Position numbers and translations under genes: made by a program | Shown here: positions 26,947-40,635 of the stretch, piece by piece | How positions within the stretch are numbered: the stretch's first letter is position 1 | Layout of the letters: each line of letters begins with the position of its first letter | Assembly: GCA_903877645.1 (NCBI GenBank) | Contig: CAIRES010000025.1 | Coordinates: 1 to 52,787 of the forward strand | Length of the DNA stretch: 52,787 nucleotides | Origin: an uncultured Bacteroidota bacterium | GTDB lineage: Bacteria; Bacteroidota; Bacteroidia; Chitinophagales; Chitinophagaceae | Reading direction: 5' to 3' | The notes under the pieces: generated by a model | What the model saw: only the letters and a program-made list of their open reading frames with translations | Database searches by the model: none | Told to the model about the DNA's origin: nothing

Positions 26947-27552
26947 CTACCTGTAATCCTTATCATACAAAGCCACCAGTTCTCCCCAGCCCAGTATATG
27001 GCCTTCCATTATTTTCAGCAGATCGGCTTTGCTGGCATTGCGGCTCAGGTTCAGTTTGGTATCAAGGGCATATACTTTGAAGTGTATATGGTGCGCGCCT
27101 TTTGATGCGCACATACCTATGTAGCCCCTGGCGCTTGCAGTGTTGAGGCCCTCAAAGTCGTTCTTATAATTCTCGGGTATGAAGCTGCCGGTATCTATGT
27201 TCCAGGTCAGCCAGTTCACATAGCAGGTGTCGGCTTTTACTACGGCCATGGGTGCCTTTACTTTTCTTACGTGGTGGCCTTTCTTTACGGGCTTGGGTGG
27301 CGCTACATATTTCTTATCCAGAAAGCGGGTGTAGTCGGCATCCTCTACGATCACGGCCAGTGAGCGGGTCCCGGCGGGCAGGTTGGCAATATTGAGCGGA
27401 GGGCTGGCTCCCTGGCCCAGGCAGGTGTATTTTACAGGGATATAGCCATTGGGCTTAATAGCATAGCTGGTAACGGTAAGGCTCTTCTTATAGGAAAAAG
27501 AAGTAAGCCCGAAAAGTACGATAACGAGTAACGAGTTGAGGAAGGTGCGCAT
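26947..27552 (-). CDS. YbhB/YbcL-type PEBP (Raf kinase inhibitor-like) protein
   Basis: A 201-residue protein of the phosphatidylethanolamine-binding protein family, bacterial YbhB/YbcL branch. The fold signatures are visible: IPVKYTCLGQGASPPLNI (about residues 38-55), SLAVIVEDADY (about 63-74), VNWLTWNIDT (about 115-124) and GAHHIHFKVYALDTKL (about 155-170). A hydrophobic N-terminus (MRTFLNSLLVIVLFGLTSFSY) suggests export, unlike cytosolic YbhB. An insert of Lys/Pro residues (PPKPVKKGHHVRK) sits in the middle. The biological role of bacterial PEBPs is mostly unknown. Confidence 0.87.
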   Translation of the reverse strand: MRTFLNSLLVIVLFGLTSFSYKKSLTVTSYAIKPNGYIPVKYTCLGQGASPPLNIANLPAGTRSLAVIVEDADYTRFLDKKYVAPPKPVKKGHHVRKVKAPMAVVKADTCYVNWLTWNIDTGSFIPENYKNDFEGLNTASARGYIGMCASKGAHHIHFKVYALDTKLNLSRNASKADLLKIMEGHILGWGELVALYDKDYR

Positions 27553-29815: not shown

Positions 29816-30715
29816 ATGATAACGCTTGATCAGTTAAAAGCAATATATAATGATGCGGAAGCAGATGCTCATTTTGCTTACTTAGGTAATAAGCATAGAG
29901 GTGGTGTTAATAATTCGAAAGGAAATACTTTTGAAAACTTCTTTACAGTATACCAGGTGGCTAAGTCATTTAACGATGATGATGACCATGAACGTACATT
30001 TCTTTCATCCCAGGTTCGTGCATTTATAGATGACCTGGTCATTGAATCCCCTGATAAGCAATTGAGCAAATTTTTCCAGATCAAAGATGTTCAAAATCTG
30101 AGTTGGACAACGGGCGACCATCCTATTCAAGATGATTTTGAAATGCAATATAATGTATGCACTCAAAACGGCAAGGATGCTGAATTGTATCTTACAGTTT
30201 CCCGCACAGAATTATGTGATATACTTGTTGCGGGATTGCCTGAAAAGATCAGCACTTATACCAAAGTCATTCATTTTGGTACAGCAGATTCTATTAATAG
30301 CTTGATCAGAACAAACAATGATTTTAAGGATGAATTGGTTAAAATGTGTGCTATATCTAACCCCTCATCAGACACTCTGGATGCTTTAGGCACAATAGTA
30401 TTAGGTGCATGGGATGGAACGAATAAAACCAACGTATCTATAGCCCACATTCTTAACAAATGTTACGATGAAAATCCTAACTATATAAAAGGATTTGAGA
30501 ACAGGGTCTCTGAAAACTTAAATAGAGTACTTGGGTCAATAAATGGGTTTACTTTTGTGGTGGAGCATGGTTACATTGTGTGGAACTATTTGAATTCAGA
30601 TAAGGGTATCTTGCAGTATGCAATAGGCACAAGGCAATATGTACAATGGGAGAATGACATTACTAATTCAGGAGCAGAGATCACATTTGAAATACTGGAA
30701 CCTTTTTTAAGCTAA
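29816..30715 (+). CDS. Putative PD-(D/E)xK nuclease (Cap4/DUF4297-like)
   Basis: A 299-residue soluble protein. The N-terminal 95 residues carry a pattern like that of Cap4/DUF4297-type dsDNA nucleases: RGGVNNSKGNTFEN with a candidate Glu40, then a hydrophobic helix, AFIDDLVI with Asp72/Asp73, and FFQIKD with Gln88 and Lys90 (a D...QxK active site). The remaining 200 residues match nothing I know and could be a sensor or partner-binding region. ATG 29816 is preferred; an in-frame TTG at 29750 reads through the palindrome. The next gene starts 5 bases after the stop. Nuclease assignment is by motif only. Confidence 0.6.
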   Translation: MITLDQLKAIYNDAEADAHFAYLGNKHRGGVNNSKGNTFENFFTVYQVAKSFNDDDDHERTFLSSQVRAFIDDLVIESPDKQLSKFFQIKDVQNLSWTTGDHPIQDDFEMQYNVCTQNGKDAELYLTVSRTELCDILVAGLPEKISTYTKVIHFGTADSINSLIRTNNDFKDELVKMCAISNPSSDTLDALGTIVLGAWDGTNKTNVSIAHILNKCYDENPNYIKGFENRVSENLNRVLGSINGFTFVVEHGYIVWNYLNSDKGILQYAIGTRQYVQWENDITNSGAEITFEILEPFLS

Positions 30716-30720
30716 ATAAT

Positions 30721-31413
30721 ATGGGAAGAAAATACCAGGGGGGAATTACCGGAGAGACCATTAGTTTGCTTGATAAATTGATCAATGAACAAACGAATAG
30801 TACTGAATATGCCCATGCTATGTATGAGCTTGGCAAAGTATTTGGCAGTATTCTTCTTTCATCTGTAAGCAATGCCGAAACAGTAGCGCTCGCAAGTACT
30901 GTAGAAGATGCTGATTTTTTAGGAAAAGGCATAATAGATGTGTTGGAAAATAATGGCAAGAAAGTACTACTAACCGTTTTCTGGAATAAACGATTTAAAC
31001 CAAATTCGGAAAACAATCTTTCTGTTGCACCTATTTTACGTGAGTTTCACCAGGAAGGATATAATAAACCAGGTGTGCTTATAGTTATAAAGTCGATTAT
31101 AGCTAACTCGTGCGTTGTGAGGACAAATCTTACAAAACTTATAGAAGAATCAAATCCGAACGAAATTTTTATAGTGGCGCCGGTATTATTAGTCGGGGCT
31201 ATTAAAAACCTGGAAAGTGAATTTGATAAGCAGATAAGCGACCGGTTTAGTTACCTGTATTTTGCAGAAGACAATGAGAAAACCAAAGAAGGAATGGTAT
31301 TGCCCGGAATAGGTGGAGATGTCTATCAGCGACTTGGGTTCAGCAATCAGGATACAAAAAATAAATTCACTCCACGGATCGTAAAAGAAAGAAGAGCTAT
31401 AGCTATAAAATAA
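30721..31413 (+). CDS. Divergent uracil-phosphoribosyltransferase-like protein
   Basis: A 230-residue cytosolic protein whose layout follows uracil phosphoribosyltransferase. The N-terminal helix region (TNSTEYAHAMYELGKVFGSILL, residues about 25-46) resembles the UPRT EFR...G..L..E segment. The strand-loop-helix VLIVIKSIIANSCVVRTNLTKLIE (119-142) stands where the PRPP loop (DDxxxTG) should be. GMVLPGIGGDVYQRLG (191-206) resembles the C-terminal uracil-binding YIVPGLGDAGDRLFG motif. The PRPP-loop acidic pair is absent, so it may be inactive or altered. It is the second gene of a tight pair with a nuclease-like protein and is followed by a terminator. The assignment is tentative. Confidence 0.5.
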   Translation: MGRKYQGGITGETISLLDKLINEQTNSTEYAHAMYELGKVFGSILLSSVSNAETVALASTVEDADFLGKGIIDVLENNGKKVLLTVFWNKRFKPNSENNLSVAPILREFHQEGYNKPGVLIVIKSIIANSCVVRTNLTKLIEESNPNEIFIVAPVLLVGAIKNLESEFDKQISDRFSYLYFAEDNEKTKEGMVLPGIGGDVYQRLGFSNQDTKNKFTPRIVKERRAIAIK

Positions 31414-31417
31414 TAAA

Positions 31418-31444
31418 AAGAGGCTACCCACCGGATAGCCTCTT
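31418..31444. terminator. Bidirectional terminator
   Basis: The 9-bp stem AAGAGGCTA/TAGCCTCTT with a 9-nt loop lies 5 bases after the UPRT-like stop and 24 bases before the convergent gene's stop. Confidence 0.75.
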
Positions 31445-31467
31445 CTCAAAGATAATATCGAACTCAT

Positions 31468-38107: not shown

Positions 38108-38542
38108 TATGAATTGTGGTTATATTTTCAAAGTGTAATAAGTTGGGTAAGGGCTGTATTCCCTACTTACCGAAAAGAAATGAAGGGTTTGCAATGGGGA
38201 TTTTTTTACAACGATTTTAAGAATGGGAAATTTGATACTAAAAAAATAGAAAAACAGATAGCGGAATTAATGCAAGATGAAGATGTGACAAACAAGAAGG
38301 GTATTTATGAGTATATCCTAAGCGGAAATGAAAAGCATTTGAATATTCGTGCCTTTAGCGATAACCAAAAAAGAGAAGCATACGAAAGGCAAAAAGGTAT
38401 TTGCGCAAAGTGTGGTGCTCATTTTGAATTATCAGAAATGGAAGCCGACCATATTAAACCGTGGCACGATAGCGGTAAAACTTCTGCTGATAATTGCCAA
38501 ATGCTATGCCAAGACGACAATAGAAGAAAATCGGGCAAATAA
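38108..38542 (+). pseudogene. 3' remnant of a DUF262/HNH nuclease gene
   Basis: The frame from 38108 has no convincing start codon (a TTG at 38114 is the only early option) and begins mid-domain: YELWLYFQSVISWVRAVFP...YRKEMKGLQWGFFYND resembles the C-terminal half of DUF262 (GmrSD-type) proteins. It ends in an intact HNH motif, CAKCGAHFELSEMEADHIKPWHDSGKTSADNCQMLC..DNRRKSGK. The family cleaves modified DNA or phage DNA. The N-terminal DUF262 NTPase part is absent, so this is a decayed defence gene unless the HNH piece alone is expressed. Confidence 0.7.
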
Positions 38543-39472: not shown

Positions 39473-40635
39473 ATGAGATTTTGTCTGGCCATAGTCCTTG
39501 CATTTATTGCGCATAACGTATCAGGCCAAAATAAATTGGCTCCGGATATCTATAAGGAACGCAACCAGGTGAACGGGCAGATATTGAGTGGAGGTTATAA
39601 AGGTTTTGACGTGGTGACATTCGAACTATCTGCAAGCGGTACAATGGATACCGTTGACATTGATCACTACGAGTATTTTCCTTCAGGTCTCATCAAAGTG
39701 GCCAGCCACTATGATTATGGCACCTGGGATGCTGCCAGGGAGCAGCCTTTCGGCCGCAGGCTAAGTATGCTGAAACAAGGAGAGCGGACGAGCTACACGT
39801 ACGACCCAAACGGCAACATGCTCACCAAAAGGACGTACCAACTGGCTCCCGCGAATTCTTATATCGCTCTACAGGAAACTGCTATGCGGCCTGCTATGGA
39901 CGAGTGGCGGCCCGAAGATGGTGGCCATCCTGATATGGAAAAGGGGATCAGTAATATAGATTCTTTGATAACAGCAGGTATACCGGAGATTGAAAATATT
40001 ACGGCCAGTGAGCAGTATACTTATAACAAAGATGGCAACCCCATTTACTCAGTAGATTCCATAAGCAGGAAGGAAACAAGATATACCTACCGTTATGATA
40101 AAAAAAAGCGTGTGATCGCTGAACGCAGGACTGCGAATTCCAGGTACACATTTGCTGAATACCATTTCGGGTATGATAAGTATGGCAATGCCGACACCAT
40201 CAGGTTTATAAAAGTGACGGTGATACCACAACGCCTCCGGGCCCGCAGAATATGGTATACGTAACCCGCAGAGTTTATAATGCCGGGAACCAAATGGTGC
40301 AGGAAGTATTTACCACGCATGATCGAAGATCATCGTTCTCAAAGAAAAATATATACACCCTCAGCGATACGCTGATAATGGCTGTTGTAACCATTGATCT
40401 GAATGGCAGAAATGATACAGAATCGGTGTATGCTAACACATATGATGCCCGGCATAAAATTATTGAGCAAAAGAATTATACATTCAGTGGTGGCAAACGC
40501 AGCCTCTTAAAACTTGAAGAATACAGCTATGCCACCGAAGGCAATATAAGCGAAGTACGGTATAGCCGGCAAGGGTTGGAGCCGGGCGCGAAGCGTACAA
40601 TGTATAAGCGGGAAATGTTCTTGTTGTACAAGTAA
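39473..40635 (+). pseudogene. Secreted YD-repeat-like protein gene with a frameshift
   Basis: Two frames, 39473-40264 and 40252-40635, form one 387-codon gene if one A is added to the A-run at 40210-40213. The first frame has a signal peptide (MRFCLAIVLAFIAHNVSGQ) and YD/RHS-like motifs (YTYDPNGNM, YTYNKDGN, YTYRYDKKKRV, YDKYGN). Past the A-run its reading (VIPQRLRARR) is unnatural, while the second frame gives SDGDTTTPPGPQNMVYVTRRVYN and continues the repeat pattern. Natural decay or a sequencing error are both possible. The gene stops one base from the convergent DUF4249 stop. Function unknown. Confidence 0.7.

What the first reader, a model, noticed from the sequence alone, without database searches (positions are those of the whole stretch)
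29816..31413. Two-gene unit: Cap4-like nuclease plus UPRT-like protein, a candidate undescribed defence or stress module
Seen: two genes 5 bases apart, an upstream palindrome and a downstream terminator make a compact unit. The first protein has Glu40, Asp72/73 and Gln88-x-Lys90 in the spacing of Cap4/DUF4297-type nucleases. The second follows uracil phosphoribosyltransferase layout with a UPRT-like C-terminal PGIGGD motif. Known: Cap4-type nucleases are effectors in anti-phage systems. Inference: the UPRT-like protein could sense a nucleotide or PRPP, or make a signal that controls the nuclease. I know no named system with this pair. The region immediately downstream (31.5-40.6 kb) is rich in rearrangement scars and a decayed HNH gene, as defence regions often are.
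Basis: partly seen in the sequence, partly recalled or inferred. Interest (0 to 1): 0.78.

Follow-up and report, generated by a model that had tools for sequence, protein, structure and literature searches.

The report
DNA-cutting enzyme paired with altered uracil enzyme
Two neighbouring genes, one for a predicted DNA-cutting enzyme of a family used in anti-virus defence and one for a protein shaped like a uracil-salvage enzyme but with its active site rewritten, form an unnamed unit found in many kinds of bacteria that probably destroys DNA when infection is sensed.

The parts
29816..30715 (+). gene 1: 299-aa Cap4-clade PD-(D/E)xK nuclease; E40, D72/D73, Q88-x-K90; nuclease domain about residues 31-225, further C-terminal part about 226-299
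30721..31413 (+). gene 2: 230-aa UPRT-fold protein with rewritten PRPP site (E62-D63-x-D65; K124-S125-x-I127...C131) and UPRT-like C-terminal PGxG (195-199)
30716..30720 (+). 5-bp intergenic gap; in relatives often a 4-bp overlap or a gap of a few bases
31414..31448 (.). hairpin between convergent genes; terminator-like on the minus strand only

Best explanation
A two-gene, horizontally spread defence (abortive-infection or toxin-antitoxin-like) module. Gene 1 is a Cap4-clade metal-dependent DNA nuclease, the effector. Gene 2 is a UPRT-derived pseudoenzyme that binds gene 1 and keeps it inactive. Its rewritten PRPP pocket reads a nucleotide or another small molecule whose level changes on infection. 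The change releases or activates the nuclease, which degrades DNA and stops phage replication. Shown here: the fold matches, conserved catalytic residues, gene pairing, defence-rich context, and gene 2 surviving without gene 1 but not the reverse in the sets examined. Inferred: binding, restraint, ligand, trigger and DNA cleavage.
Confidence: 0.55

Rival explanations
1. Gene 2 is a positive partner (scaffold or activator), needed to assemble and switch on the nuclease; defence, but no antitoxin role.
For: Known Cap4-clade nucleases work with a partner that holds and directs them (HamB constrains HamA: PMC12278908, abstract start, passages). UPRTs form oligomers (recalled).
Against: Intact gene 2 persists without gene 1 at 4 of 80 loci and beside partial gene 1 at 9, and in IMG/VR contigs; a pure activator would have no use alone.
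Confidence: 0.22
2. A plasmid or genome addiction (toxin-antitoxin) module, with phage defence secondary or absent.
For: Same loss asymmetry; the pair sits on a 10.4-kb cyanobacterial plasmid near its replication gene and on a conjugative cyanobacterial plasmid (both genes confirmed by profile), and beside an integrase-like ORF in an IMG/VR contig (L181).
Against: Strong defence-gene context; catalytic and pocket residues conserved beyond what simple binding would need.
Confidence: 0.13
3. Gene 2 is a working enzyme with new chemistry on a PRTase fold that makes or destroys a signal controlling the nuclease.
For: The replacement residues are invariant (E62, D63, D65, K124, S125, C131: 70 of 70), as in an active site; the UPRT-like PGxG is kept.
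Against: The UPRT residues that bind PRPP are replaced (their role is recalled); no recurring third gene (largest group 4 of 76 loci).
Confidence: 0.1

Closest known systems
Cap4 (CBASS effector; 6vm6, 6wam)
   Different: Gene 1 has 299 aa and the match covers mainly the nuclease part; partner is UPRT-like
Hachiman HamA / HamB (8zue)
   Different: Partner is a helicase in Hachiman (PMC12278908, passages), a 230-aa UPRT-fold protein here
Lamassu LmuA (9nxx, 9ux7)
   Different: Lamassu's partner is SMC-like (PMC10586767, abstract start only); here it is UPRT-like
HerA-DUF4297 (9c1m)
   Different: Partner is the HerA ATPase (recalled; two-component system per abstract start of PMC12198126)
Uracil phosphoribosyltransferase (1xtt, 3g6w)
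   Different: PRPP signature and ILRAG loop replaced by K-S-I-I and E-D-A-D
DprA-PRTase system and retron type III PRTase
   Same: PRTases in anti-phage systems (PMC9122126 and PMC12548924, passages read)
   Different: Partners are DprA, or a retron reverse transcriptase with a winged-helix protein; gene 2 hit no PADLOC model at E 1
DefensePredictor E. coli systems (PMC13092281)
   Same: 13 of 31 validated systems have PD-(D/E)xK domains and a figure legend lists a PRTase domain (section 5, outline and passages read)
   Different: I could not see which system has the PRTase; Xenorhabdus and Chimaeribacter copies of the present pair had no DNA match in the 5,426 E. coli genomes, though copies below about 65-70% DNA identity would be missed

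Membership tests
Cap4/DUF4297-clade PD-(D/E)xK nucleases | Nuclease fold of the clade | tested here: met
Cap4/DUF4297-clade PD-(D/E)xK nucleases | Catalytic E, D, (E/Q)xK | tested here: met
   E40 70/71, D72 and D73 71/71, Q88 70/71, K90 71/71; motif definition recalled
Cap4/DUF4297-clade PD-(D/E)xK nucleases | Match to a curated family model | tested here: not met
   no Pfam or NCBIfam match over cut-off; no nuclease family among Pfam matches of 24 relatives; PADLOC PDLC00744 only E 0.013
Cap4/DUF4297-clade PD-(D/E)xK nucleases | DNA cleavage | not testable with these tools
   needs protein
CBASS (Cap4 effector) | SAVED domain and a CD-NTase neighbour | tested here: inconclusive
   match to Cap4 is mainly the nuclease; no recurring third neighbour (largest group 4 of 76 loci); no cyclase-specific search was run
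Uracil phosphoribosyltransferase (fold superfamily) | UPRT fold and detectable sequence kinship | tested here: met
   PF14681 matches 7 of 30 relatives at E 0.1, best 0.0014
Uracil phosphoribosyltransferase (enzyme) | PRPP signature DxxxATG | tested here: not met
   K at the D position in 70 of 70, register
Uracil phosphoribosyltransferase (enzyme) | ILRAG loop | tested here: not met
   one search puts E62-D63-x-D65 (70 of 70) in its place; the full-length alignment registers this region otherwise, also without ILRAG
Uracil phosphoribosyltransferase (enzyme) | Catalysis uracil + PRPP to UMP | not testable with these tools
   needs an assay; 22 of 24 genomes tested hold a full-length PF14681 match elsewhere, the own genome only a partial 34-bit one, one genome none
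Toxin-antitoxin module | Two adjacent co-oriented genes; toxin not kept without antitoxin | tested here: met
   0 full gene 1 without full gene 2 (13 cyanobacterial genomes with gene-1 match; 80 loci baited with gene 2)
Toxin-antitoxin module | Gene 1 toxic, gene 2 neutralises | not testable with these tools
   needs expression

The most novel reading that the evidence does not exclude
A new immune principle: a uracil-salvage enzyme turned into a sensor by swapping the charges of its PRPP site. It reads phage-driven change in pyrimidine or PRPP-like pools and directly unleashes a Cap4-clade nuclease, and phages carry solo copies of the sensor to disarm the nuclease.
Probability: 0.27. Interest if true: 0.86.

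Novelty: new variant of a known kind. Interest (0 to 1): 0.72.

Why it matters
The Cap4-clade nuclease is a shared effector plugged into several immune sensors: SAVED receptors, a helicase, SMC-like proteins, HerA, STAND proteins (matches; partners partly recalled). A UPRT-fold partner would add a nucleotide-metabolism protein to that list. It makes testable whether cells watch pyrimidine or PRPP-like metabolites as an infection sign. The invariant charge-swapped pocket is a concrete target for ligand discovery, and the solo copies in IMG/VR contigs suggest a natural antidote.

Tried and rejected
Upstream palindrome as a module element: rejected, 0 of 62 relatives. Downstream hairpin as the module's own terminator: not supported on the plus strand. 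Gene 2 as the cell's UPRT: not favoured, as PRPP residues are replaced and 22 of 24 genomes tested keep a full-length true UPRT; the own genome shows none. A conserved third gene: the largest recurring neighbour group covers 4 of 76 loci. Fusions of gene 1 and gene 2 lie outside the length window of the protein search and were not excluded. Clean empty site: mntH orthologues (78-79%) lie near mntR in four congeners (with 1.5 to 2.7 kb between them in L205 and L204; argS also seen in L202 and L203), and the pair and the window's other downstream genes were not found in the fetched stretches, but for a 29% match of the T9SS protein in L204; so this is a variable-region boundary, not a precise insertion. 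Named collections: no phage record match, two cyanobacterial plasmids, no E. coli match. Literature: the answered searches showed no nuclease-UPRT pair; only open-licence PubMed Central papers are held, so this is weak evidence of absence. Supplementary files were not open to me, so the PRTase system of PMC13092281 stays unidentified.

Rows dropped: of 390 neighbour ORFs at 76 loci 276 were aligned and scanned; dropped were 11 over 1200 aa, 70 under 130 aa and 33 others, among them all of L022, L025, L028, L035, L074, L076 and L081; L020 had no neighbours. The outputs show 25 of 203 and 25 of 144 families. The matched test used all ORFs of 130-1200 aa among the nearest three per side at 20 loci each (98 and 106); one search shows 25 of its 204 families.

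Full report
What is there. Gene 1 (29816-30715) and gene 2 (30721-31413) are intact, co-oriented and 5 bp apart. Neither reaches a curated cut-off in Pfam or NCBIfam; the best PADLOC match is E 0.013 for gene 1 and none for gene 2. Where a source names a relative it is nearly always 'hypothetical protein' among the rows listed (25 for gene 1, 120 of 309 for gene 2); one gene-2 relative is called phosphoribosyltransferase in UniRef.

Active sites. Gene 1 keeps E40, D72, D73, Q88 and K90 in 70-71 of 71. In gene 2, profile alignment to 20 true UPRTs puts E62-D63-A-D65 on the ILRAG loop and K124-S125-I-I on DPML of the PRPP signature, while PGIGG lies on PGLGD. That cut alignment has E 2e-5 to 3e-5 and probability 46-78%; the full-length global one has E 1.1e-9 and 96%, but registers the first loop differently. 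The K-on-D register of the PRPP signature is also given by the independent alignment to S. solfataricus UPRT; the first-loop register rests and on the order of predicted strands and helices. E62, D63, D65, K124, S125, I127 and C131 are 70 of 70. So the site has been rebuilt under strong selection rather than left to decay, which speaks for binding something other than PRPP, or for another role at that surface.

Unit and spread. A scan of genome contigs returned 80 loci (the tool's maximum, and all that were confirmed among 142 stretches) from Bacteroidota, Cyanobacteria, Pseudomonadota, a Fimbriiglobus, a Nannocystis, a Paceibacterota and others. Gene 1 or part of it lies upstream in 70 of 80; both are full in 61. 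Distances of the two families correlate at 0.90 over 62 loci, though shared host descent contributes. The unit is rare: gene 1 in 1 of 392 genomes of the window's phylum (the own one), gene 2 in 2 of 392, one marginal at 20 bits; 1 of 253 in the class of a Rugamonas, the centre genome itself; 13 and 18 of 242 in the class of a Calothrix. It is also on two cyanobacterial plasmids.

Loss asymmetry. In the cyanobacterial sample all 13 genomes with a gene-1 match have full gene 2 within 150 bp. Of the 11 full gene 1 copies two carry a stop; the other two genomes hold gene-1 remnants. Full gene 2 also occurs without gene 1 in one genome (G594), nearly full near a contig end in another (G619), and as fragments in three. 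Among the 80 loci no full gene 1 has a broken gene 2; 4 have full gene 2 without gene 1, 9 have partial gene 1 (two at contig edges, one borderline at 84%), and 6 have only fragmentary gene 2. In IMG/VR contigs L085, L086 and L088 gene 2 is identical to that of L087 at the nucleotide level, while gene 1 is gone except for its last 31 bases; L084 also has gene 2 without gene 1. These contigs are near-identical there, so they may reflect a single event.

Context. Among the families shown, neighbours hit BREX helicase, Hma, Gabija, Septu, DRT, PifA, Druantia, SIR2 and other PADLOC models (lists capped at 25). In a matched test in the same 20 genomes, module neighbours hit 204 models and true-UPRT neighbours 10. 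In the window the pair follows argS-YbhB-mntR-mntH (YbhB is my reading of 26947-27552; mntR and mntH) and opens a region not found in the stretches fetched from four congeners. The nearest defence-like gene found is a restriction-enzyme remnant at 38114-38542.

Reading. I take gene 1 as effector and gene 2 as restraint plus sensor. Nuclease fold and residues: about 0.93. Real two-gene module: about 0.97. Defence role: about 0.75. Gene 2 restrains gene 1: about 0.55. Ligand of pyrimidine or PRPP type: about 0.3. The comparison with Hachiman, where HamB constrains HamA (PMC12278908, abstract start and passages), is an analogy and not a test.

Novelty. The nuclease clade is known; the partner is new to it as far as these searches show. 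I call it a new variant of a known kind. The main threat to novelty is the unidentified PRTase system of PMC13092281 (outline, section 5 and passages read).

Noticed in passing
window 38114-38542: HNH protein of 142 aa aligning only to residues 231-372 of a 372-residue type II restriction-enzyme model (E 2.2e-57): a remnant restriction enzyme.
   Followed up: partly
window 39473-40264: Short protein with a weak RHS-repeat match (E 1.7e-4), possibly a fragment of a larger RHS gene.
   Followed up: no
L084-L088, L020: Phage-like contigs carry gene 2 with or without gene 1; downstream ORFs look like tail proteins and in L085 a tRNA-like sequence precedes gene 2, both read by eye only.
   Followed up: partly
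L181:1140-2899: A divergent gene 1-gene 2 pair (profile E 4e-49 and 8e-76) beside an integrase-like ORF (read by eye) in an IMG/VR contig.
   Followed up: partly
G000 (whole genome): Only partial PF14681 matches (best 34 bits in a 172-aa frame); no clear full-length UPRT gene.
   Followed up: no
P0115, P0124, P0129, P0131: Gene-2 relatives with an added DUF2188 domain (PF09954; C-terminal in P0115 and P0129).
   Followed up: no
L003:1462-2112: A 216-aa protein in a congener with weak kinship to gene 2 (profile E 5.7e-7) and no gene 1 in the 3.2 kb held; perhaps an ordinary PRTase.
   Followed up: no
L022, L074, L076: Three loci of Calothrix and Dulcicalothrix share the same neighbours around a gene 2 without gene 1, full in one and broken in two.
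   Followed up: partly
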